A stretch of 64,000 bases of DNA from Maridesulfovibrio hydrothermalis AM13 = DSM 14728 (GTDB lineage: Bacteria > Desulfobacterota > Desulfovibrionia > Desulfovibrionales > Desulfovibrionaceae), in NCBI RefSeq assembly GCF_000331025.1, contig NC_020055.1, positions 1,706,370-1,770,369 on the forward strand, written 5' to 3'. The notes under the pieces are model-generated. The model worked only from the letters and a program-made list of their open reading frames with translations. It was not told the origin of the DNA and did no database searches. Below are positions 12,716 to 32,210 of this stretch, one piece after another. Both the position numbers and the translations under genes were made by a program. The stretch's first letter is position 1; every line of letters starts with the position of its first letter.

Positions 12716-13205
12716 ACAAACCTGCGTTAAAAAAACGAACAATGGGAAATTAAAATATTCATAAATATATCACCTTTTATTGTTTGTTCCTAGCACTTTT
12801 AAAAAGTATTACATGTAGTATTCCATATTCGTGTTTTTGATTATATTTCAAAGTGTTAGTTGTTATTAATTCCTTTGTTAAGTTTAAAACAGTACATATG
12901 TGAATAAAATGGCACTTGATTACGAATAATATGTCAATAAAATTTATTATATACTATTTTAGTGTGTTTTGGTAGTATCTTATAAAAAAAAATGTGCAAA
13001 AAGTTGCACGTCAGAACTGGAATATTTAGAAATAATGATGGATAATATGCAAAAAAGTGCACCAAATATCTATTTAAATCTATCATCAATGATTTTTATA
13101 TGGTATATACGATCTAAATTAGGATTGGTGAGCTAAATAAATGGTATGGAATAGTAATTGCTTACAGCAAAGGCAACCCCCAGTAATAGCTTCGCAGGAG
13201 ATTCA
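12716..13205. promoter_or_regulatory. Divergent intergenic region with a paired 16-bp palindromic repeat upstream of the efflux operon
   Basis: This AT-rich 490-bp region separates the - strand phosphatase from the + strand efflux operon. It holds a palindrome GTGCAAAAAGTTGCAC (12994-13009; arms GTGCAA/TTGCAC) and a near copy ATGCAAAAAAGTGCAC (13047-13062). The two are 53 bp apart, about five helical turns. The spacing and symmetry suggest operator sites for a dimeric regulator, probably of the efflux operon. No regulator gene is adjacent and no clear consensus promoter is visible. Confidence 0.55.
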
Positions 13206-14603
13206 ATGCCTTATAAATTTATATATACAGTTATCATGATTCTGTTTTCGCTCATCTTTTTTCCGGCCCACGGGGAAACGCAGGAAGCTTCAAATGAAAC
13301 CATAGCTGAATATAAGAGCAGGCAGGGTGAAATAGAGGAGTTGACCCAGTATCTCGTTGAGGCTGCGCGTAATAATGATGATCTGTATTCTGCATTTTAC
13401 AGCTGGAAGGCAGCGTTGCAGCGGGAGACCAGTTTTTCCAGCTTGCCTGACCCCAGATTCAGCTTTGCGTGGTTCATCCAGCCGGTTGAAACCAGAACCG
13501 GACCGCAGGAATTCAAATATGGACTGAGTCAGACCCTTCCGTGGTTCGGCAAACTGGACCTTAAAGGAGAACAGGCCCTGCGTGATGCAGACATCAAAAA
13601 AGCTAAATTTGATGCCTTGAAATTAAAGATTTTTTATCAGGTGAAAAAAACTTACTACGATTATGCATTTCTTGCGCAGGCTATCCGCATTACCCGTGAA
13701 AATATTGAACTCATGAAATACCTCGAAAGCGTAGCCCGCTCCAGATACACCACCGGATCAGGAACCTATGACGGAGTCATCAAGGCTCAGGTTGAGCTGG
13801 GCAAGCTTGAAGACAGGCTCCGGTCACTTGAGGAGCGCAAAAGACCTACATCCGCTAAACTGCTTGCCGCTATGAACAGGTCAAGTGAAGGGGTTTTGCC
13901 CCTGCCGGCTTCAATCCCTGTTATGAAAATCGAAATAGATCCTTTGCAGCTTAAAAAGGATTTCAAAGAATCCAATCCCCGCCTGCTGGCTCTGACCCAT
14001 AAAATTAATAAAGAAAAAGTTTCGGTAGAACTTGCTGAAAAGGACTACTTTCCAGACTTTTCTTTTGGCGTTGAATATATTCAGACAGGAAAATCCAGAT
14101 CGCCAAATGTGACTAACGCGGACCGCGACCCCATAGTTGCAGGTATGTCAGTAAATCTGCCCATATGGCTCGACAAGCAGGAGGCTCAGCTCGTTGAAGC
14201 AAAGTACAAGGTTAAATCAGCCAGCCGCGAACGGGCAGGACTTGAACGCAACCTTTCAGCCGATCTTGAACTGGAAATATACCGTTATGAAGATGCCATC
14301 CGTAAAGTTAAACTTTATCAGGATTCCCTTACCCCCAAAGCTGAGCAGTCGCTTGCTGTTTCTATTGAGAGTTTTCAGTCCGGAACCGCTTCATCCAGTG
14401 ATCTGATTGATGCCGAACGGACTCTCATTGAATTTCAGCTTGTTTATTATGAAGCCCTCGCCGAACAAGCTAAAAAAGTAGCTGCCATTGAATATCTGGT
14501 TGGTCGTGAGATACCCTGTACCGTGCATGGTTCAACCCTTACTCAGACATCAGCAATTATCTCTGCTCAGCAATTAAAACAAAACGGAAGCCATAATGAG
14601 TAA
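13206..14603 (+). CDS. TolC-family outer-membrane efflux protein (CusC-like)
   Basis: This is the outer-membrane channel of the tripartite metal efflux pump encoded here. The 465-residue protein has a signal peptide (MPYKFIYTVIMILFSLIFF, cleaved near AHG/ETQ) and two helical OEP repeats; the second ends in SFQSGTASSSDLIDAERTLIEFQ, a pattern typical of metal-efflux OEPs. The start at 13206 is chosen because AGGAG lies at 13196-13200 and because the signal peptide begins here; a longer in-frame TTG start at 13158 adds 16 residues. It overlaps the next gene by 8 bases. Confidence 0.9.
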   Translation: MPYKFIYTVIMILFSLIFFPAHGETQEASNETIAEYKSRQGEIEELTQYLVEAARNNDDLYSAFYSWKAALQRETSFSSLPDPRFSFAWFIQPVETRTGPQEFKYGLSQTLPWFGKLDLKGEQALRDADIKKAKFDALKLKIFYQVKKTYYDYAFLAQAIRITRENIELMKYLESVARSRYTTGSGTYDGVIKAQVELGKLEDRLRSLEERKRPTSAKLLAAMNRSSEGVLPLPASIPVMKIEIDPLQLKKDFKESNPRLLALTHKINKEKVSVELAEKDYFPDFSFGVEYIQTGKSRSPNVTNADRDPIVAGMSVNLPIWLDKQEAQLVEAKYKVKSASRERAGLERNLSADLELEIYRYEDAIRKVKLYQDSLTPKAEQSLAVSIESFQSGTASSSDLIDAERTLIEFQLVYYEALAEQAKKVAAIEYLVGREIPCTVHGSTLTQTSAIISAQQLKQNGSHNE

Positions 14604-16800
14604 TATTAAAAATATTAAATCAGCACTGGTCCCGATTATTATTGTGGCTGTTATTGCTTTTGGAGCAGGCTACTGGATTTCCGGTCCGGCTGAAGACAGT
14701 GCAGGAAAAAGTATAGTTGATGAACACGCTGAACACGGATTGGATGCTGAAATTACAGATACTGGCGAAGTGGTCTGGACCTGTTCTATGCATCCGCAGA
14801 TTCAGCTGCCGGAACCGGGTAAATGTCCCTTGTGTTTCATGGATTTGATTCCCCTTGAGAAAGGAGGCGAGTCAGGTGATGAAGCCATCAGTCTCAGGCA
14901 GATAAGCTTAACCGACAGGTCACGCAAACTTGCCGGAATTGCCTCCAGTCCGGTGGAGAGAAGAAACGTAAGCGTGGAAACCCGCATGGTGGGTAAGGTT
15001 GATTATGATGAAACCCGCATCGGTACGATCACCGCATGGACCGGAGGCCGTATTGATAAATTGTATATTGACTATACCGGAAGTTCTGTGCGCAGAGGGC
15101 AGGCTATGGCTTCCATATACAGCCCTGAACTTCTTACCGCGCAGGTAGAATTGATTCAGGCTGTTAAAGCTAAAGAAGCGTTGCAGGGAAGCTCTATGAA
15201 AGTGGTCAAAGACACTGCTGCCCGCACGGCAAAAGCAGCGCGTGAAAAGCTCCGGCTGCTCGGTCTTTCAAAAACACAGATTGCAAATATCATTAAAAAA
15301 GGCAAAGCAGCACAGCATATAACTCTTTATTCTCCCATGAGCGGAATAGTTATAAAAAAAGATGTTGTTGAAGGTGTTTACGTAAAAACAGGGACGCCGA
15401 TATACACCATTGCAGACCTTTCAAGGGTCTGGGTCATTCTCGAAGCTTATGAATCTGACCTGCCGTGGATAAGAATGGGAATGCTCGTAGATTTCACAAC
15501 AGAAGCTTATCCCGGCAAATCTTTTCAAGGAAAAGTAGTTTACATTGATCCGGTTGTTAATGAAAAAACCAGAACAATCAGAATCCGCCTTGAAGTTCCG
15601 AATAAAGGTCTAAAGCTCAAGCCCGGCATGTTCGTGCGCGCAGTCAGTCAGATTGACAAAAAGGCAGAAACTCAGCTGGTTATCCCTGCCTCAGCCCCGC
15701 TCATTACCGGAAAACGGGCAGTGGTATATATAGCTGTACCCGGAAAAGAAGGTGTCTACGAAGGACGTGAAATTGTTCTCGGCCCCAAAGCCGGAGATTT
15801 CTACGTTGTTAAATATGGTCTGGCTCAAGGCGAGCGTGTAGTGACTAAAGGTAATTTCAAGATAGACAGTGCACTTCAGATCATTGCCAAACCAAGCATG
15901 ATGAATCAGGAAAGCGGTGTGAAAAAGGCTGTCCATAATCATGGCGGTGATTCCGCTGTCATGGAGAATATGGACAATAAAATACAGCCTGAATATACAC
16001 TGCCACCACTTTTTATATCCAGACTGGTTTATTTGAAGAAAGATTTTGATAAACTTATGGAAACAGCCAAGTCAGGCAATATTGATGAATCCCGTAAGCT
16101 TTACTCAAAATTCTTTGATAGTGTTACTGCGATAGACAGCTCCGGCCTAAAAGGGGAGTCCTCGCTGGTCTGGAAAGAACTGTCCATGCTTTTAGCCAAC
16201 GATACAGTGCTGGGCAGTGGAGTGAAAGATGCACGCAGGCTGAAGTCCGTCACGGAAGAGACAGCGAAACACTTTATGCGTCTTGATATGGCTTTTGATA
16301 TCTCAAATATCGCCAAACATGCCGGAAGCACCGTGGCTGCCCCTGAAGTTTTCAAAGCTCAGCTCGGCAAGGTTTACACTTCTTACTCCGCTTTCACAGA
16401 AGCTCTTGCCGCAGACAATATGCAACTTGCGCAAAAACAGGCTGCACTTATGACAGAAGAGCTTAAGAAAGTTGACCACGGCTCTCTTTCTGAGGAGGCC
16501 CATATGGTCTGGATGGGCGCCCTTAAAAATATAAATGACGGAATAAGTGCCATCCGCGAGGCAAAAGATATTGTGGGTATACGAGCCGGTCTTGAGCCTC
16601 TTTCCTACGGCATGATTGACGCGGTAGAAAAACTGGGCATCAAGTCCACACAGCCGGTATATGAGGTGTTCTGTCCTATGGCCTTTGATTTTAAAGGGGC
16701 CAAGTGGCTGCAAAGTGATGAGAATATACGCAACCCCTATTTCGGGGAGGCCATGCTCCAGTGCGGTGAAGTGGAGCGGCAGATTAAAGGCAAGGAATAA
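14596..16800 (+). CDS. cusB: RND periplasmic adaptor of heavy-metal efflux (CusB-like) with metal-binding N- and C-terminal domains
   Basis: The 734-residue membrane-fusion protein links the CusA-like pump to the outer-membrane channel. Order: TM anchor (residues 10-29), a heavy-metal-binding domain with WTCSMHPQIQ (61-70) and GKCPLCFMDLIPL (75-87), barrel-sandwich/lipoyl and beta-barrel domains (for example YSPMSGIVIKKDVVEGVYVK), then a C-terminal extension of about 270 residues. The end of that extension (VFCPMAFDFKGAKWLQ and NPYFGEAMLQCGEVE) matches the DUF3347 metal-binding type. Cu(I)/Ag(I) is the likely substrate; the sequence does not exclude other soft metals. CusB of E. coli is about 407 residues, so this adaptor is nearly double in size. 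Confidence 0.9.
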   Translation: MSNIKNIKSALVPIIIVAVIAFGAGYWISGPAEDSAGKSIVDEHAEHGLDAEITDTGEVVWTCSMHPQIQLPEPGKCPLCFMDLIPLEKGGESGDEAISLRQISLTDRSRKLAGIASSPVERRNVSVETRMVGKVDYDETRIGTITAWTGGRIDKLYIDYTGSSVRRGQAMASIYSPELLTAQVELIQAVKAKEALQGSSMKVVKDTAARTAKAAREKLRLLGLSKTQIANIIKKGKAAQHITLYSPMSGIVIKKDVVEGVYVKTGTPIYTIADLSRVWVILEAYESDLPWIRMGMLVDFTTEAYPGKSFQGKVVYIDPVVNEKTRTIRIRLEVPNKGLKLKPGMFVRAVSQIDKKAETQLVIPASAPLITGKRAVVYIAVPGKEGVYEGREIVLGPKAGDFYVVKYGLAQGERVVTKGNFKIDSALQIIAKPSMMNQESGVKKAVHNHGGDSAVMENMDNKIQPEYTLPPLFISRLVYLKKDFDKLMETAKSGNIDESRKLYSKFFDSVTAIDSSGLKGESSLVWKELSMLLANDTVLGSGVKDARRLKSVTEETAKHFMRLDMAFDISNIAKHAGSTVAAPEVFKAQLGKVYTSYSAFTEALAADNMQLAQKQAALMTEELKKVDHGSLSEEAHMVWMGALKNINDGISAIREAKDIVGIRAGLEPLSYGMIDAVEKLGIKSTQPVYEVFCPMAFDFKGAKWLQSDENIRNPYFGEAMLQCGEVERQIKGKE

Positions 16801-16806
16801 GGCGGG

Positions 16807-19800
16807 ATGAGTATGAGTGATAATTCAACACCCAAAGCACAGCATCCTGTCCCCCGGAGCTTTACGGAAAAGACGATTCTGTTCTGTCTTGAACAGAAAT
16901 TGATTGTCGGTATTCTCCTGCTTGTGGTCATCGGCGGAGGAATATTCACAGCCCCTTTTGACTGGAAAATTGATGGTATTGACAGGTCACCTGTCCCCGT
17001 TGATGCCATTCCGGATATAGGGGAAAATCAGCAGATTATTTTTACCAAATGGATGGGCCGCTCCCCGCAGGATGTTGAGGATCAGATCAGTTATCCATTG
17101 ACCGTGGCTTTGCTGGGTATTCCCGGAGTTAAAACAGTCCGCAGTTATTCTATGTTCGGCTTTTCTACTATCTACGTTATTTTTAACGAAGATATTGATT
17201 TTTACTGGTCCCGCTCGCGGCTGCTTGAGAAACTTAACAGCCTTCCGGCAGGAACGCTTCCTGACGGGATAAAACCGTCCCTCGGGCCTGATGCAACGGC
17301 CTTGGGTCAAGTGTACTGGTATACTATTGAAGGACGTGACCCTGCCGGTAATCCAACTGGAGGGTGGGGGCTTGATGAATTGCGTTCAGTACAGGACTGG
17401 TACGTCCGGTATGCTCTGCTGGCTGCTGACGGGGTCAGTGAAGTAGCCTCGGTCGGCGGGTTTGTGAAAGAGTACCAGATTGATGTCGACCCCGATGCCA
17501 TGCGGGCTGCCGATGTCACACTGAACGATGTTTACCGGGCTGTAAAAATGTCCAACCTCGATGTGGGCGCGCGGACCATTGAAATTAACAATGCCGAATA
17601 TGTCATCAGGGGTATTGGTTTTATTAAAGAACTTTCTGATATTGAGAGTTCGGTTGTTAAAGTCGTTAATAACATTCCTATCCATGTCCGTGATGTTGCA
17701 CGGGTGACAGAAGGTCCGGCCCTGCGGCGCGGCGCGCTTGATAAAGGCGGGGCGGAAGTTGTGGGCGGCGTGGCAGTCGTTCGCTACGGCGAAAATCCTT
17801 TGCAGGTTATCGAAAATATCAAAGCTAAAATCAAAGAGATTTCACCGGGGCTGCCCTCAAAGATTCTACAGGACGGAACCGAGAGCAAGTTGACCATTGT
17901 GCCTTTTTATGATCGCTCCGGCCTGATCCATGAAACACTCGGTACGCTTAACACAGCGTTGACCGAGGAAATATTGATCACAATTATTGTTGTCCTTATT
18001 GCAGTCATTCACCTCAAAAGTTCACTGCTTATTTCATCATTGCTACCCCTTGCCGTGCTTATGTGCTTTATCGGCATGCGTATTTTCAAGGTCGATGCAA
18101 ATATTGTTGCTCTCTCGGGAATTGCCATTGCCATCGGTACTATGGTTGATATGGGAATTATCATCTGTGAAAATATTCTTAAAAAGCTTGAAAAAGCAAA
18201 AGAAGGAGTCAGCAGGCTTAAGCTTATTTACGATGGCACTACCGAAGTAGGCAGTGCCGTTATGACTGCTGTTGCAACCACAATTGTCAGTTTCATGCCG
18301 GTTTTCGCTATGGACGGAGCCGAAGGAAAGCTCTTCAAACCTCTGGCTTATACCAAGTCCTTTGCCTTGCTGGCCTCCATTATTGTCGCCCTGACAATTT
18401 TGCCGGCTATGGCTCAGCTTCTCTTCACTGCGCGTAGAAAATTTTTAAAAAACAAACAGACATATATCCGCGCCGCTCTTTATTTTATTTCCGGCATCGC
18501 AATATCCATCATGTTGAAATGGTGGGTTGGTATCTTCTTTATGTACTTAGGGTTAAAGAATTTCGTATTGCCATTTTTTTCGGAAAAAGTGCATAATTTT
18601 ATTAATTACGCGGAAACATGGACAATTGTCGCTATGGTCGGCTGGGTTCTTACCAGTTCATGGCTGCCGCTGGGACCGGAAAAAGGGATGAGCAGCAACT
18701 ATATGTTCGTTGCCCTGATTATCGGCGGGTTGATGCTCTTTTTCGATATTTTCCGTCGCAACTATCCAGTTATGCTGGGCTGGTGTTTGAATCATAAGCT
18801 GCTTTTTTTGTGCCTGCCCGCTTTCATTACTGTTCTGGGGATGTCCATCTGGCTGGGGTTCGGCAATATTACCTCATTTCTTCCTGAGACAGTTAAAGCA
18901 TCATCACCCTATGTAAAGCTGGCGCATTCTTTCCCCGGACTGGGGAAGGAGTTTATGCCCAACCTTGATGAAGGTGCGTTTCTTTTCATGCCTACCACCA
19001 TGCCCCATGCATCAATTGGAGAAGCTCAAGATGTGTTGCGCAAGCAGGACATGATGATTCAATCTATTCCAGAAGTTGACTCCGCTGTGGGAAAACTCGG
19101 GCGTGCGGAAACCCCTCTTGACCCTGCTCCGATCTCCATGATCGAAACTGTTATCAACTATAAATCTGAGTATCTGACTGATAAATCAGGAGAAAGGTTG
19201 AGGTTCAAATTCGATCCGGATCAGAAAGATTATTTCCGTAATGCCGACGGCGGTCTTGTGCCGGCGCAAGATGGTTATCCATATTTGGTACAAGGATATT
19301 ATGAAAGGGATGAAGACGGAAAATTAATTCCTGATGAAGACGGCAAACCTTTCAGAATATGGCGTGCAGCTCTCAATCCCGGCCTGAATCCGGACCGCAA
19401 AAGCTGGAAGGGCATTAATTCTCCTGACGATATCTGGGATGAAATAATCAAAGCCGCGGAAATTCCCGGAGTGACTTCCGCACCTAAACTTCAACCCATC
19501 GCCGCACGAATTGTCATGCTCCAATCCGGTATGCGCGCGCCTATGGGTATAAAAGTCAAAGGTCCAAGTCTGGAGATTCTTGAAAAGGTCGCACTTGATT
19601 TGGAAAGACTGCTCAAGCAGGTCGGTTCGGTGCAGCCGGAAGCCGTCATTGCAGACCGCATTGTAGGTAAACCTTACCTTGAGATTATTATCGACCGTGA
19701 AGCCATTGCAAGGCACGGAGTCATGCTTTCTCAGGTGCAGGACGTTATTGAAGTTGCTGTGGGCGGAAAGGTTGTGACTACAACTGTTGAAGGCCGTGAG

Positions 19801-20721
19801 CGTTACCCTGTCCGAGTTCGTTACTTGAGAGAGCTTAGAGACAATATAGATAGTCTTGGTAATATCCTTGTCAGCGCCCCCGCAGGTGAGCAAATCCCGT
19901 TAAGCCAGTTGACCGAGATAAAATATATTCGCGGTCCGCAGGTCATAAAAAGTGAAGATACTTTTCTGGTCGGCTACGTACTTTTCGACAAAAAACCCGG
20001 TTTTGCCGAGGTTGATGTGGTTGAGCACGCTCAGGCTTTTCTGGATTCCAAAATTAAATCTGGTGAGTTGGTTATTCCGGCCGGAGTGTCCTACGAATTT
20101 GCAGGAAGCTATGAAAATCAGATCAGAGCGCAAAAGAAGCTTGCTGTAATTCTGCCGCTGGCTCTACTGGTTATTGTCCTTATTTTATATTTGCAGTTCA
20201 AATCTATGGCGACAACGCTTATGGTTTTTTCCGGTATTTTTGTAGCATGGTCCGGAGGATTTCTTATGATCTGGCTGTACGGTCAGGCATGGTTCTTAAA
20301 TTTCACTATGTTCGGAACGGACATGCGCGAGTTGTTTCAGGTTGCACCGATCAACTTAAGCGTTGCCATCTGGGTGGGCTTTCTGGCTTTGTTCGGAATA
20401 GCCTCGGACGATGGCGTAATTATGGCGACATATCTGGATGAAAGTAAAAAAAGACGCAAAATGCAAAGTATCCCCGAAATCAGGCAAGCCATAATAACTG
20501 GAGCACAAAGAAGAATCCGCCCGGCACTCATGACCTCGGCAACAACTATTCTTGCTCTGCTGCCTATCCTGACCTCGACAGGGCGAGGTTCTGACATAAT
20601 GGTGCCTATGGCAATACCTTCATTCGGAGGGATGACTATAGCGATCTTAACCGTATTTGTTGTGCCGGTGCTTTATTGCGGGGTAGAGGAGATTAAGTTT
20701 AAGCGTGCTGGAAGCAGTTGA
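16807..20721 (+). CDS. cusA: Heavy-metal RND efflux pump (CusA/CzcA family), unusually long
   Basis: This is the inner-membrane proton-driven pump of the tripartite system, exporting soft metal ions. It shows the family signature DAIPDIGENQQIIFTKW near residue 68 and the motif MLQSGMRAPMGIKVKG near residue 905, which resembles the CusA metal-site methionine segment. The length, 1304 residues, is about 250 above the usual 1040-1060. Extra sequence lies in two places: about residues 544-660, with several added hydrophobic segments between TM6 and TM7 (for example IAISIMLKWWVGIFFMYLGL), and about residues 785-865, a charged insert in the second porter region. The ATG at 16807 has GGCGGGA upstream; ATG 16813 is also possible. 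Confidence 0.92.
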   Translation: MSMSDNSTPKAQHPVPRSFTEKTILFCLEQKLIVGILLLVVIGGGIFTAPFDWKIDGIDRSPVPVDAIPDIGENQQIIFTKWMGRSPQDVEDQISYPLTVALLGIPGVKTVRSYSMFGFSTIYVIFNEDIDFYWSRSRLLEKLNSLPAGTLPDGIKPSLGPDATALGQVYWYTIEGRDPAGNPTGGWGLDELRSVQDWYVRYALLAADGVSEVASVGGFVKEYQIDVDPDAMRAADVTLNDVYRAVKMSNLDVGARTIEINNAEYVIRGIGFIKELSDIESSVVKVVNNIPIHVRDVARVTEGPALRRGALDKGGAEVVGGVAVVRYGENPLQVIENIKAKIKEISPGLPSKILQDGTESKLTIVPFYDRSGLIHETLGTLNTALTEEILITIIVVLIAVIHLKSSLLISSLLPLAVLMCFIGMRIFKVDANIVALSGIAIAIGTMVDMGIIICENILKKLEKAKEGVSRLKLIYDGTTEVGSAVMTAVATTIVSFMPVFAMDGAEGKLFKPLAYTKSFALLASIIVALTILPAMAQLLFTARRKFLKNKQTYIRAALYFISGIAISIMLKWWVGIFFMYLGLKNFVLPFFSEKVHNFINYAETWTIVAMVGWVLTSSWLPLGPEKGMSSNYMFVALIIGGLMLFFDIFRRNYPVMLGWCLNHKLLFLCLPAFITVLGMSIWLGFGNITSFLPETVKASSPYVKLAHSFPGLGKEFMPNLDEGAFLFMPTTMPHASIGEAQDVLRKQDMMIQSIPEVDSAVGKLGRAETPLDPAPISMIETVINYKSEYLTDKSGERLRFKFDPDQKDYFRNADGGLVPAQDGYPYLVQGYYERDEDGKLIPDEDGKPFRIWRAALNPGLNPDRKSWKGINSPDDIWDEIIKAAEIPGVTSAPKLQPIAARIVMLQSGMRAPMGIKVKGPSLEILEKVALDLERLLKQVGSVQPEAVIADRIVGKPYLEIIIDREAIARHGVMLSQVQDVIEVAVGGKVVTTTVEGRERYPVRVRYLRELRDNIDSLGNILVSAPAGEQIPLSQLTEIKYIRGPQVIKSEDTFLVGYVLFDKKPGFAEVDVVEHAQAFLDSKIKSGELVIPAGVSYEFAGSYENQIRAQKKLAVILPLALLVIVLILYLQFKSMATTLMVFSGIFVAWSGGFLMIWLYGQAWFLNFTMFGTDMRELFQVAPINLSVAIWVGFLALFGIASDDGVIMATYLDESKKRRKMQSIPEIRQAIITGAQRRIRPALMTSATTILALLPILTSTGRGSDIMVPMAIPSFGGMTIAILTVFVVPVLYCGVEEIKFKRAGSS

Positions 20722-21051
20722 AGAAGAAAAAAACAGCCGGGACTTTTATCTGAAAATTGCTGCGCAAACTGCTGTTGAGACGGATTTTAAGTCTGGCATA
20801 AATTGATGCTGTTCGGGAGAATTTTGCAGTTAATAGTTGCGTGATAAAATCAAAGTCAACATTGTATAATTTTCGCCTTTAGATATACATGATATTGAAG
20901 GGCCTGGTGTTCTTTTCAAGCTTTATCAGGAGCTTGACAGGGTTGTGTTATTATTTAGATCTCGCTTAGGGTTATCGGTAAGAGAGTCGTAGTTCACTCT
21001 TACTCTCCCAAGGGATTGTGGGGTTTATTCATGAAAAACTCTAGAAAATTC
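20722..21051. other. Intergenic region upstream of the riboswitch
   Basis: No gene is seen. The stretch contains a small hairpin (GTAAGAG/CTCTTAC near 20980-21005) and no clear terminator for the efflux operon; the sequence after the cusA stop is only A-rich. Confidence 0.4.
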
Positions 21052-21079
21052 TTGACCAGAAACGAAGGTTTGTTAAGCT
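21052..21079 (+). promoter_or_regulatory. Possible promoter for the riboswitch-nrdJ transcript
   Basis: TTGACC (21052-21057) and TAAGCT (21074-21079) are spaced by 16 bases just before the riboswitch. The -10 hexamer is a weak match. Confidence 0.4.
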
Positions 21080-21094
21080 TTTCTCCGTTGATTT

Positions 21095-21222
21095 TGCATT
21101 TCAGGAATCTGAGTTTTTTCAGATCATGACAGAGGGAACCCGGTTAGATTCCGGGGCGGTTCTGCCGCTGTAATTTTTATCCGTTTCAGGATTAAGAAAA
21201 GCCAGCCTCCCTGCCTGAAGTT
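21095..21222 (+). ncRNA. Cobalamin (B12) riboswitch
   Basis: The conserved core of the adenosylcobalamin riboswitch is present in order: GAGGGAACCCGGTTAGATTC and CGGGGCGGTTCTGCCGCTGTAA (21132-21173), matching the consensus GGGAA..CCGGT..A..CCGG..C.G.C.CGC..CTGTAA. The 3' box AGCCAGCCTCCCTGCC follows (21200-21215). The closing P1 helix can form between TTTCAGG (21099-21105) and CCTGAA (21214-21219). It lies about 230 bases before nrdJ. A GTCTG/CAGAC hairpin (about 21224-21240) and a CGGCCCA/TGGGCCG stem (about 21278-21318) downstream are candidates for the expression platform. Confidence 0.85.
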
Positions 21223-21453
21223 TGTCTGTGTTTTGCAGACTTTTCCACATTCCGGACACCCCTTTTTTTAAAGGCTCCGGCCCAAAAAAAATCTGCAGAA
21301 TGTGCCTTCTGGGCCGTCTGCGCCACAAGCTTATATCCCCTTTCTCCTTGCGGAAGACTTTCATCGCAGCTTTTTTTCAAATGGTTGCGTCGTTGGTGTT
21401 TTGCATGATGGGCAAATGTTTGTACGGACTATATTTTTAAAGGATCTCATACA

Positions 21454-24138
21454 ATGACCGAACATGCCGTTATCACACGCGAATCCGCCAAAATGGCTTT
21501 GGAAGAACATATTCGTTTTCAAGAAACTGTCAGCTCTAAGAAATATCAGATCCGTGATCGTAACGGCAGTCTTCAGGAGCACTCCTTTAATGATGTTAAA
21601 AATAGACTTTGTCGAGAATTTTTAAAACAGTCCCGCTTTGAGAATCAGGAAAACGAACAGGTGTGTGAAATGATCCAGTCAGGACGTTTTATACCCGCCG
21701 GTTCCATTTTGTCTGGTCTGGGAAACGAGCACAGCAAATGCTCTTTGAGCAATTGCTATCTGGCCAAAATTGAGTCCGATTCTTTGGAGGGCATTTTTGA
21801 AGCACAGAAAAAACTTGCACGGACCTATTCCTACCGCGGCGGCAGCGGGATAGATATCACTATACTGCGTCCTTCAGGTGACCCTGTTAATAATGCCGCA
21901 GTCACTTCTTCCGGAGCGGTAAGCTTCATGCCTTTGTTCAGTGAATTGACCAACACCATAGGGCAGAACGGCAGGCGCGGCGCACTCATGATTTCTTTGG
22001 ATATCAGACATCCTGAGACCCGCCGTTTTATCTGGTGCAAAAGTAAGCCTGAACAGGTTTTCGGTGTGGATTCCCTTACTGGTAAAACTCAGGATGTGTT
22101 CGGGGCTAATATCAGCCTTAAGATTACTGATGAATTTATGCAGGCTGTAGAAGAAAACAAGGACTGGACTTTTGTTTTTCCTGACCGGAGCAAGGTGACA
22201 GGCAAGATTTGTGATGCATCTACTTTACAGCTTTTACCTGATGTCTACAATGCGTTAGAGCCGCAGATAGGGGATCGCCTTGAGTCTGATATTCTGTACA
22301 AAGTCACAGCCCTTGATCCCAAAAAATATTTGATAAAAGTGCAACCGGACCTTCCTGTTGACGGAGAAGAGGCCGCGCTTGCTGAAGATACTTTGACATT
22401 TACTATTTCCAGACGGCGCAGCGAAACTTCTGATATTTTTGATACTGTCAATTCAGTATATAACGGTATCTGGGACGGTGATTATAGCCGCTGGCAGGAA
22501 CTCGGGCTTCCTCTCAAAACATATGAAACGGTCAACGCACGGGATTTGCTTGAAGAAATCAGCACCTCGGCATGGCAGTCCGGAGATCCGGGCATCCTTT
22601 ATCAGGATAAAACTCAGCAGAACACTCCCGGAACATTTATTGATCCACTGCGCCTTAAGCCTATGTCCACCAATCCTTGTGGAGAGCAAGGGCTGGGTTA
22701 CTGGAACAATTGTCTTCTAGGGGCTATGGTTTTGTTTCGCTATGTAGTGAATCCCTTTACAAAAGAAGCCCGGTTCGACATGGATCTGTTTCGGGACGAT
22801 CTTGTCCGGACAATGGCCTTTATGGATACCATGTCTGATCTCAATCAGAACAAACATCCGCTTCAGAAACATCGGGATGCAGACAGGTATGGTAAAAGAA
22901 TAGGTATAGAATTCACAGGTCTTGGCGACATGCTGGCCATGCTGGGCATGCGCTACGGTAGCGAGGAGTCCATCGCTTTTATCAGAGAGGTTCTGCATGA
23001 CAAAGCCATTACTGAAATTTCCATCAGTGCGGATATTGCCGAACGTTTCGGGGTGGTGGAAGCGTTAAAAGATCCGGAAGCCAGAAAACGTTTTCTGGAG
23101 TGTCCGTATATTGTAAACCTCGGCCTGCCAAAACAGTTGCAGAAAAAAATTATGAAGACCGGACTTCGCCATACGGCTTTTAATACCGTTGGGCCGTCAG
23201 GATCTATTTCAATTATGTCGGATAACTGCACCTCAGGGATCGAGCCGGCATTTCTCTTCAGCTACACCCGCGAAACCCGTCTTGAAGCTGGGAAAGTTTT
23301 TGAGTTTATCCATATGCCTCCGCTGAAATGGATGCTTGAAACTAATCAGGAGGAGCTGTTCGGCAAATACACCGCCAGCCAGCTCAAAGAAAAGCTGAAC
23401 TATGTGCAGGCTGACGAACTTGATTATATGGACCGTATCCGTTTGCAGGCTGCGATTCAGGAATACACAGACAGCTCTATTTCCTCGACCATCAACCTTG
23501 CTGAAGATACTCCTAAAGAAACCATATTTCAGATATACCTTGAAGCATGGAAGCACAATCTCAAGGGAGTAACGGTCTTTCGCAACGGTTGCAAAAAAGG
23601 AGTGCTAAGCAAAAAAGAAGAGACGAAAGAGGCCGATCCGTCCATGCTGGGCCAGAATCCAACTCTGGTTGAAAGAGAGCTGGGAGATATTGAACGTGCC
23701 GAGCGGCATCGGGTTATGTGGAAAGGCTCCAAGATGTATATTATAGTCTCTCTGGATGATGCCGGAAGCCCCATTGAAATATTTGTGAAACTTCCTAAGG
23801 AAGCCGGACTGACCGGAAACGGTCTATACAACGAACAGGTCTTTCAGGAGAAATATTCTCTCTGGGAAACCATTACCCGTCTGATCAGCATGCTTCTCCG
23901 TGTCGGCATGCCCATTGACCGTATTCTTACCCAGCTTGATCGCTCAAGCTATAATATAATTGATGCTTCAGCGATTATCTCCCGCATTTTACGTCAATAC
24001 ATATCCCTTGATATGGATGATCAGACAATAGTCTCCAAAGGACTTGGCGATACCTGCCCTGAGTGTGGTAAAAATGCCTATGTACCGGAGAGCGGGTGCA
24101 AGATTTGCAAAGCTTGCGGTTATACTACCTGCGGATAG
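21454..24138 (+). CDS. nrdJ: Adenosylcobalamin-dependent (class II) ribonucleotide reductase
   Basis: NrdJ reduces ribonucleotides to deoxyribonucleotides using a thiyl radical made from adenosylcobalamin, in air or without it. The 894-residue protein has the core motifs: CSLSNCYLAKI near residue 108, NPCGEQGLGYWNNCLLG near residue 407 with the active-site Cys and Glu, and TAFNTVGPSGSISI near residue 572. The C-terminus ends in a zinc-ribbon CPECGKNAYVPESGCKICKACG, which re-reduces the active-site disulfide or binds metal in the family. The start has AAGGAT upstream. A cobalamin riboswitch precedes it. Confidence 0.95.
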   Translation: MTEHAVITRESAKMALEEHIRFQETVSSKKYQIRDRNGSLQEHSFNDVKNRLCREFLKQSRFENQENEQVCEMIQSGRFIPAGSILSGLGNEHSKCSLSNCYLAKIESDSLEGIFEAQKKLARTYSYRGGSGIDITILRPSGDPVNNAAVTSSGAVSFMPLFSELTNTIGQNGRRGALMISLDIRHPETRRFIWCKSKPEQVFGVDSLTGKTQDVFGANISLKITDEFMQAVEENKDWTFVFPDRSKVTGKICDASTLQLLPDVYNALEPQIGDRLESDILYKVTALDPKKYLIKVQPDLPVDGEEAALAEDTLTFTISRRRSETSDIFDTVNSVYNGIWDGDYSRWQELGLPLKTYETVNARDLLEEISTSAWQSGDPGILYQDKTQQNTPGTFIDPLRLKPMSTNPCGEQGLGYWNNCLLGAMVLFRYVVNPFTKEARFDMDLFRDDLVRTMAFMDTMSDLNQNKHPLQKHRDADRYGKRIGIEFTGLGDMLAMLGMRYGSEESIAFIREVLHDKAITEISISADIAERFGVVEALKDPEARKRFLECPYIVNLGLPKQLQKKIMKTGLRHTAFNTVGPSGSISIMSDNCTSGIEPAFLFSYTRETRLEAGKVFEFIHMPPLKWMLETNQEELFGKYTASQLKEKLNYVQADELDYMDRIRLQAAIQEYTDSSISSTINLAEDTPKETIFQIYLEAWKHNLKGVTVFRNGCKKGVLSKKEETKEADPSMLGQNPTLVERELGDIERAERHRVMWKGSKMYIIVSLDDAGSPIEIFVKLPKEAGLTGNGLYNEQVFQEKYSLWETITRLISMLLRVGMPIDRILTQLDRSSYNIIDASAIISRILRQYISLDMDDQTIVSKGLGDTCPECGKNAYVPESGCKICKACGYTTCG

Positions 24139-26129: not shown

Positions 26130-26273
<144 letters not shown>

Positions 26274-32133: not shown

Positions 32134-32210
<77 letters not shown>

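What the first reader, a model, noticed from the sequence alone, without database searches (positions are those of the whole stretch)
21095..21454. Cobalamin riboswitch in front of the B12-dependent ribonucleotide reductase
The conserved riboswitch core and 3' box lie about 230 bases before nrdJ. Cobalamin riboswitches usually turn genes off when B12 is present, and reported cases before reductase genes control the B12-independent enzyme. Here the downstream enzyme needs adenosylcobalamin, so an off-switch would cut the enzyme when its cofactor is plentiful. Either this is an on-switch, or NrdJ is tuned down when holoenzyme is abundant.
Basis: partly seen in the sequence, partly recalled or inferred. 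Interest (0 to 1): 0.7.

Follow-up and report, generated by a model that had tools for sequence, protein, structure and literature searches.

The report
B12 riboswitch leader shared with nrdD
A vitamin-B12-sensing RNA switch sits in front of a B12-dependent DNA-precursor enzyme in a group of sulfate-reducing bacteria, and it is a sister copy of the switch in front of the B12-independent enzyme, so the usual idea of swapping one enzyme for the other with B12 supply does not fit in a simple way.

Summary
A cobalamin riboswitch aptamer lies at 21086-21232 (+), just after a conserved promoter (21052-21079) and 221 bases before nrdJ; the 12 nrdJ genes held of this genus all have it. New context: one of two nrdD genes of the genome (class III, B12-independent) has a paralogous leader: same promoter, a compact aptamer unlike the large ones of this genome, and a covarying hairpin, 'element C' (21295-21321). 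The 14 best aptamer matches fetched outside the genus precede nrdD (12) or nrdG (2), so nrdJ most likely took over an nrdD leader. Of 17 genus genomes none has NrdB; three, 99% complete, have only NrdJ and the riboswitch-type NrdD, so all reductase genes found there follow such a switch; five keep the nrdD leader without NrdJ. Simple isozyme switching therefore does not explain it. Sign and ligand cannot be read from sequence. I favour partial repression by adenosylcobalamin with the same sign as nrdD (0.5); an on-switch is the main rival (0.25).

The parts
21000..21046 (+). Block shared with the nrdD leader upstream of the promoter (TTACTCTCCCAAGGG at 21000-21014; GAAAAACTCTAGAA at 21033-21046): possible operator
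   Evidence: Aligned nrdJ leaders and nrdD leaders; not conserved in every nrdJ leader; function inferred
21052..21079 (+). Promoter: -35 TTGACC 21052-21057, 16-base spacer, -10 TAAGCT 21074-21079; predicted start of transcription about 21085-21088
   Evidence: TTGAC[CG]-N16-TA...T in 12 of 12 genus nrdJ leaders and 15 of 16 nrdD leaders; not found in the two nrdJ leaders of another family; the generic scan did not list it
21086..21232 (+). Cobalamin riboswitch aptamer, compact form without the large P7-P12 extension
   Evidence: RF00174 42.6 bits; own model R1 138.2 bits, but the window's sequence is in its training set
21160..21164 (+). Loop L5, UUCUG (9 of 10 large aptamers compared have CCCG there)
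21200..21215 (+). 3' box AGCCAGCCUCCCUGCC with CCUCCC in place of the purine-rich J6/3 (GAAGA or GGAGA)
21224..21240 (+). Hairpin A (GTCTG/CAGAC), variable loop
   Evidence: aligned, reduced in some relatives
21252..21280 (+). Hairpin B (CCGGA/TCCGG), absent in several relatives
21295..21321 (+). Element C: conserved two-helix hairpin GCAGA...GCC-UUCUG-GGC...UCUGC; its 5' strand CAGAA is complementary to L5
   Evidence: 96.3% of cells paired, 4 of 8 pairs with changes on both sides, slid controls at most 47.9% paired; complementarity to L5
21440..21444 (+). Shine-Dalgarno sequence AAGGA of nrdJ
   Evidence: sequence; no conserved pairing partner
21454..24138 (+). nrdJ, class II (B12-dependent type) ribonucleotide reductase, 894 aa

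Best explanation
The leader of nrdJ is a genuine cobalamin riboswitch leader that shares ancestry with the leader of nrdD, the B12-independent class III reductase of the same genome, and most likely came from it. Transcription starts just before the aptamer. When adenosylcobalamin (or a related corrinoid) binds, loop L5 probably pairs with the 5' strand of element C, which otherwise pairs with its own 3' strand; opening element C then lowers read-through into the gene, probably by transcription attenuation without an intrinsic terminator (for example Rho). Both reductases would thus be turned down, incompletely, when the cofactor is plentiful and up when it is scarce: NrdD as a bypass, NrdJ as more apoenzyme to catch scarce cofactor. 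Shown: aptamer, conserved promoter sequence, paralogy of the leaders, element C. Inferred: ligand, direction of the copying, kissing pairing, Rho, sign.
For: Aptamer in 12 of 12 genus nrdJ leaders. Leader paralogy with nrdD: shared promoter with a 16-base spacer in 27 of 28 leaders, alignable to the start codon; four nrdJ leaders are 74-77% identical to the nrdD leaders of G096 and G101, as high as those two show to the nrdD leaders of their nearest NrdD group, 73-77%. The 14 non-genus loci fetched with this aptamer type precede nrdD (12) or nrdG (2). Element C covaries. Its 5' strand pairs with L5 at 3 to 5 of 5 positions in 28 leaders. The same platform in both genes predicts the same sign. 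In PMC10653944 (abstract and passages) the A. [quoted passage not shown] Class I and IIb switches are said to select adenosylcobalamin (PMC11260477, passages).
Against: In 3 of 17 genus genomes (G096, G101, G156) the only reductases found are NrdJ and the riboswitch-type NrdD, so strong repression of both would stop DNA synthesis when B12 is present; repression must be partial. No ribosome-site sequestration is conserved. Most nrdJ-nrdD leader pairs other than those named are only 45-72% identical. The L5/element C pairing is not backed by covariation: where L5 is UCCUG in nrdJ leaders L020 and L010 the partner did not follow (in nrdD leader L057 it fits), in two leaders it is no better than random segments of the leader, and the last three pairs count as paired by how I picked the segment. 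The C-over-G excess after element C is modest (29% C, 19% G on average). J6/3 departs from the standard aptamer, so the ligand may differ.
Confidence: 0.5

Rival explanations
1. On-switch at nrdJ, off-switch at nrdD: after the leader was duplicated the nrdJ copy changed sign, so B12 turns NrdJ up and NrdD down, a reciprocal pair made from one ancestral leader.
For: Physiologically the most sensible scheme; required in some form in G096, G101 and G156 if the switches are strong, since no other reductase was found there. nrdJ and nrdD leaders are separated by one well supported branch (100/99, without the G114 rows), with different Shine-Dalgarno sequences (AAGGA against AGGU in most). One activating corrinoid riboswitch is known (PMC10653944), and a B12 riboswitch is reported to favour eut expression through EutV (PMC4991794, passage).
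Against: Element C, its place and the promoter are the same in both genes; no terminator that excludes a P13-like hairpin, as in the known activating switch, is seen; activation is rare in this class.
Confidence: 0.25
2. The reductase-type aptamer no longer reads adenosylcobalamin in the usual way: its J6/3 and L5 changes mark a switch for another corrinoid form or for very different concentrations, used for both reductase genes for a reason other than isozyme choice.
For: All 10 large aptamers compared (cbiK and metE of this genome and the 8 top-scoring ones of the order) have GAAGA or GGAGA in J6/3 and 9 of 10 have CCCG in L5 (metE of this genome does not), while the 28 reductase leaders of the genus have NNC[U/C]G in L5 and no GRAGA in J6/3. 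Five of 17 genomes keep the nrdD leader with no NrdJ, so the switch has a use without an isozyme to choose.
Against: The departure is not confined to this genus: by eye 6 of the 14 nrdD relatives also lack the purine J6/3, and 8 of 14 keep GAAGA or GAAAA. Class IIb switches with pyrimidines in J6/3 still bind adenosylcobalamin according to PMC11260477. Selectivity cannot be read from these sequences.
Confidence: 0.12
3. The aptamer before nrdJ is a relic of the nrdD leader; nrdJ is controlled by the promoter and its shared upstream block, and B12 has no effect.
For: The leader came as a package with promoter and upstream block; the RF00174 score is modest (36-46 bits over the 12 genus leaders), and the aptamer was not found before the nrdJ of L024 and is degenerate before that of L022.
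Against: The aptamer core and element C stay conserved across nrdJ leaders that agree down to 50% overall, with compensatory changes in element C.
Confidence: 0.1

Closest known systems
Cobalamin riboswitch before nrdDG in D. vulgaris and Desulfuromonas (Rodionov et al. 2004, PMC545781, passages read)
   Same: Related bacteria, same riboswitch family, class III reductase gene; the nrdJ leader is most likely derived from such a leader
   Different: There nrdJ is treated as the B12-dependent alternative and no riboswitch is mentioned for it in the passages I read; here nrdJ itself carries one
Cobalamin riboswitches before nrdAB and nrdDG in Propionibacterium acnes (PMC3848588, passages read)
   Same: Riboswitch control of reductase genes
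   Different: The nrdRJ operon is stated there not to have one
nrdJ RNA motif RF03034, listed before nrdJ of Streptomyces lividans (PMC8079986, passages read)
   Same: An RNA element before a class II reductase gene
   Different: A different Rfam family; the Rfam scan of the window gave no RF03034 match at gathering
Activating corrinoid riboswitch of A. halodurans cobT (PMC10653944, abstract and passages read)
   Same: Would be the precedent for an on-switch
   Different: Has an intrinsic terminator competing with P13; none is seen here
Class IIb cobalamin riboswitches, including the M. tuberculosis ppe2 variant (PMC11260477, passages read)
   Same: No P8-P12 extension, GGAA at J3/4, no purine-rich J6/3
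   Different: UCU in J6/3 absent in the window; long spacing and element C; no conserved upstream reading frame seen
V. parvula mutA cobalamin riboswitch (PMC9600662, passages read)
   Same: A riboswitch named for a gene that by name (recalled: methylmalonyl-CoA mutase) is a B12-dependent enzyme
   Different: Not a reductase, promiscuous aptamer; its sign was not stated in the passages I saw

Membership tests
Cobalamin riboswitch (RF00174) | Covariance-model score over the curated threshold | tested here: met
   42.6 against 31.5 bits; 12 of 12 genus nrdJ leaders. nrdD leaders: 12 of 16 over threshold; with laxer filters a thirteenth, L060, at 32.8 bits and the other three, L059, L061, L062, at 22.1, 28.9 and 29.5
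Cobalamin riboswitch (RF00174) | Kissing loop between L5 and an expression-platform loop L13 | tested here: inconclusive
   Element C 5' strand complementary to L5 at 3 to 5 of 5 positions in 28 leaders, without covariation
Class I cobalamin riboswitch | P8-P12 extension and purine-rich J6/3 | tested here: not met
   P6 arm is a short hairpin and J6/3 is CCUCCC; the 10 large aptamers compared are 182-205 bases long and all have GAAGA or GGAGA
Class IIb cobalamin riboswitch | No P8-P12 extension | tested here: met
Class IIb cobalamin riboswitch | GGAA at J3/4 | tested here: met
   Present in the window; by eye in 22 of 28 aligned leaders, not in L020, L023, L059, L060, L063, L064
Class IIb cobalamin riboswitch | UCU in J6/3 | tested here: not met
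   Window has CCUCCC; UCU occurs for example in nrdD leaders L063 and L064
Cobalamin riboswitch | Binds a corrinoid and changes expression | not testable with these tools
   needs binding and reporter assays
Class II (AdoCbl-dependent) ribonucleotide reductase | Sequence relation to class II enzymes and catalytic cysteines | tested here: met
   Best PDB match is the T. maritima B12-dependent enzyme; the NPCGE motif and the paired cysteines align; no NrdB in the genome or in 17 genus genomes
Class II (AdoCbl-dependent) ribonucleotide reductase | NCBIfam NrdJ_Z curated cut-off | tested here: not met
   395.1 against 399.95 bits, with a stretch between about residues 250 and 330 that PF02867 does not cover
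Class II (AdoCbl-dependent) ribonucleotide reductase | Activity with adenosylcobalamin | not testable with these tools
   needs purified protein

The most novel reading that the evidence does not exclude
A single ancestral nrdD riboswitch leader was duplicated onto nrdJ and its sign then inverted, so that one cofactor drives two paralogous leaders in opposite directions and B12 supply alone decides which reductase makes DNA precursors; in three species this pair would govern all reductase genes found.
Probability: 0.2. Interest if true: 0.85.

Novelty: new variant of a known kind. Interest (0 to 1): 0.58.

Why it matters
The usual logic is that B12 riboswitches silence the B12-independent enzyme so that the B12-dependent one takes over. 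Here the B12-dependent enzyme has a sister copy of the same leader, and in some species every reductase gene found is behind one, while others keep the nrdD leader without the B12-dependent enzyme. Whatever the sign, this makes a clear test case: either duplicated riboswitch leaders can reverse sign in nature, or cells tune even an essential enzyme down when its cofactor is plentiful. It also gives natural matched pairs of leaders in one cell for comparing platforms.

Tried and rejected
Intrinsic terminator as the platform: in the window the pattern scan found only a hit inside the aptamer and one upstream of it, and no run of five T follows element C in the 16-18 bases aligned after it; I did not run the terminator scan on the relatives. 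Ribosome-site sequestration: Shine-Dalgarno partners differ from leader to leader among nrdJ (one search stopped with a script error after 10 leaders and was rerun); in most nrdD leaders the sequence pairs locally, often with the first codons. A leader peptide starting in element C: an ATG is present in many nrdD leaders but not in all (not in L053, L060), and not in most nrdJ leaders. A thermodynamic argument: the whole leader folds no better than shuffles (z -0.93). Leader exchange between nrdJ and nrdD within genomes: a FastTree tree put 11 of 12 nrdJ leaders inside the nrdD leaders, next to those of G096 and G101, but the careful tree without the two G114 rows separates nrdJ and nrdD leaders by one branch (100/99) and its root is not inferred, so I claim only common ancestry; the direction nrdD to nrdJ rests. 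The grouping of the two G114 leaders is probably long-branch attraction (47% identity). Phage or plasmid origin of nrdJ: only distant matches under 60% identity, none among viral contigs. Literature searches did not help with the sign.

Corrections to outputs: the segment picked for J_G195 and D_G156 is wrong (a later CAG was taken); the aligned segment is CAGGA in both, which gives 5 pairs, so the mean is slightly above the printed 4.5. In one search the D_G000 segment was wrong and was replaced. In one search the starts of L059 and L060 were wrong and were moved by hand. In one search the pattern took a wrong place for J6/3 of L045; I read it by eye from the printed sequence.

Full report
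Observation. Rfam RF00174 matches window 21086-21232 (+) with 42.6 bits (gathering 31.5; E 2.3e-7 for the window; 2.8e-9 for the 801-base stretch). It is the only cobalamin-type match of the window at gathering. The next gene, 21454-24138, encodes an 894-residue reductase whose best solved relative is the B12-dependent T. maritima enzyme (E 8e-53; the NPCGE motif and paired cysteines align). It scores just below the NCBIfam NrdJ_Z cut-off (395.1 against 399.95). No other PF02867 gene and no NrdB gene was found in the genome.

The genome around it. Four RF00174 matches were found in the 3.7 Mb genome. From the reading frames beside them and their families they precede cbiK with a transporter gene (L001; the transporter by eye), metE (L002; named by eye from the reading frame), nrdJ, and an nrdD gene (L004/L007). 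A second nrdD, next to nrdG (L008), has none. So a B12-dependent and a B12-independent reductase of one cell both carry the switch.

The genus. Seventeen genomes were searched. NrdB: 0 of 17. PF02867 (NrdJ): 12 of 17. NrdD: 17 of 17; the type with the riboswitch leader in 16 of 17 (not in G247, 84% complete) and the second type in 14 of 17. The nrdG2 activase family is over its cut-off in 17 of 17. G096, G101 and G156 (each 99% complete) have NrdJ and only the riboswitch-type NrdD; G096 keeps a fragment of the second. G100, G153, G155, G172 and G179 have both NrdD types and no NrdJ. Cobalamin riboswitch before nrdJ: 12 of 12 distinct genus genes held (13 of 16 loci scanned there, the misses L022, L011 and L024 being from another family; L010 is taken to be the contig G247:C159 from its coordinates, and L009 is the same gene as L020). 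Before the first nrdD type: 12 of 16 at gathering; with laxer filters L060 (G156) reaches 32.8 bits, and L059 (G109), L061 (G179) and L062 (G172) stay under the threshold at 22.1, 28.9 and 29.5 bits. So of the five genomes without NrdJ three have the nrdD match over the threshold and two just under it. Before the second nrdD type: 0 of 14 with my own model R1.

Outside the genus. Of 247 genomes of the order 222 have some match to this NrdJ: 11 of the genus and 2 of another family at 81-100% identity, the rest that are listed at about 28-34%. Of these distant genes I scanned the 17 fetched: none has the switch (with Rfam; with R1); 16 of the 17 hold at least 540 bases before the gene, L032 holds none. 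Of the two close relatives in the other family one (G079, L022) has a weak match before nrdJ (R1, E 1.2e-6; Rfam RF01482 25.2 bits, under threshold); the other (L024) has none.

Anatomy. The leader holds a promoter TTGACC-N16-TAAGCT at 21052-21079, with the same 16-base spacing in 12 of 12 genus nrdJ and 15 of 16 nrdD leaders (not found in the two other-family leaders); this puts the start of transcription at the 5' edge of the aptamer. The aptamer is compact: the P6 arm is a short hairpin, L5 is UUCUG, and J6/3 lacks the GAAGA or GGAGA that all ten large aptamers compared have (two of this genome, eight of the order; 9 of 10 also have CCCG in L5, metE of this genome does not). Downstream come a variable hairpin A, an optional hairpin B and element C, a conserved hairpin at 21295-21321. 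On 27 leaders element C has 96.3% of cells paired and changes on both sides in 4 of 8 pairs (7 cells); shuffles of the 3' letters reach the number of such pairs in 5 of 500 and the other measures in 0 of 500; slid versions pair at most 47.9%. The alignment was not fitted to that structure, but I chose the structure from these sequences and they are related.

Origin. nrdJ and nrdD leaders align from the promoter to the start codon; nrdJ leaders of G096, G101, G109 and G156 are 74-77% identical to the nrdD leaders of G096 and G101, as high as those two show to the nrdD leaders of their nearest NrdD group, 73-77%; the other nrdJ-nrdD pairs range from 45 to 72%. A model built from the 28 aptamers and searched in 247 genomes of the order gave matches at E up to 0.01 in 161; the 14 best outside the genus were fetched (L099-L112). 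By eye on the downstream reading frames 12 precede nrdD (two of them through nrdG) and 2 precede nrdG; the many weaker matches were not examined. So the nrdJ leader is most likely a captured nrdD leader. In 6 of these 14 J6/3 also lacks the purine motif; in 8 it is GAAGA or GAAAA. The careful tree of 26 leaders (the two G114 rows left out) separates nrdJ and nrdD leaders by one branch, support 100/99, with no root.

How it works. The 5' strand of element C (CAGAA) is complementary to L5 (UUCUG); the corresponding segments pair at 3 to 5 of 5 positions in 28 leaders (two rows were mis-picked, see Tried and rejected). This would make element C the partner of the usual L5-L13 kissing loop (PMC10653944, passages), competing with its own stem. 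But covariation for it is lacking. Beyond element C little is conserved among nrdJ leaders up to the Shine-Dalgarno sequence, no U-tract follows element C, and the Shine-Dalgarno sequence has no constant partner. I therefore favour attenuation of transcription, perhaps by Rho; the stretch after element C averages 29% C and 19% G, which is weak support. The sign is inferred: the same platform as nrdD, and repression as the rule in this class, argue for off; the three genomes with no other reductase argue that repression cannot be complete, or that nrdJ is on. I put 0.5 on partial repression, 0.25 on activation, 0.12 on an altered ligand, 0.1 on a relic.

Known work. Rodionov et al. 2004 (PMC545781, passages) found riboswitches before nrdDG in D. 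vulgaris and Desulfuromonas and took nrdJ as the B12-dependent replacement. The P. acnes study (PMC3848588, passages) states that nrdRJ has none. The 2013 survey of RNA regulons (PMC3766115, passages) has no 'nrd' in its main text and lists alternatives to B12-dependent enzymes as targets. PMC5962746 (passages) says in passing that other B12-dependent enzymes, including some reductases of other organisms, are usually regulated by a B12 riboswitch, citing other work; it names no nrdJ with a riboswitch in what I saw. A different Rfam motif, RF03034, is known before Streptomyces nrdJ (PMC8079986, passages). Searches listed no paper that I could see to describe a cobalamin riboswitch before nrdJ; I saw listings and read passages of some, and many subscription papers are not in that library, so this is not proof of absence. 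Class definitions (I, IIa, IIb) are from PMC11260477 passages.

Noticed in passing
window 21000-21046: Two sequence blocks upstream of the nrdJ promoter recur upstream of the nrdD promoter in many of the genomes; possibly the site of a shared regulator of reductase genes.
   Followed up: partly
window 21454-24138, residues about 250-330 of NrdJ: A stretch not covered by PF02867, nor by the T. maritima NrdJ match (which leaves out about 199-348); in the 247 genomes searched this NrdJ type was found only in this genus and in two genomes of another family.
   Followed up: partly
genomes G100, G153, G155, G172, G179: These keep the riboswitch-type nrdD but no class II reductase was found, so the switch there cannot serve a choice between NrdD and NrdJ.
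   Followed up: partly
G096:C1:752883-753210: Fragment of the second nrdD next to an nrdG2 gene over its cut-off: a loss that leaves only riboswitch-preceded reductases.
   Followed up: no
L022 489-652 (another family of the order): Weak, degenerate cobalamin riboswitch before an 83% identical nrdJ, under the Rfam threshold but found with the genus model.
   Followed up: partly
window 26130-26203 and 32134-32207: Two tRNA genes with the same score and, as printed, the same sequence about 6 kb apart.
   Followed up: no
window 13158-20721: A TolC-type, CusB-type and CusA-type metal efflux set directly upstream of the nrdJ leader.
   Followed up: no
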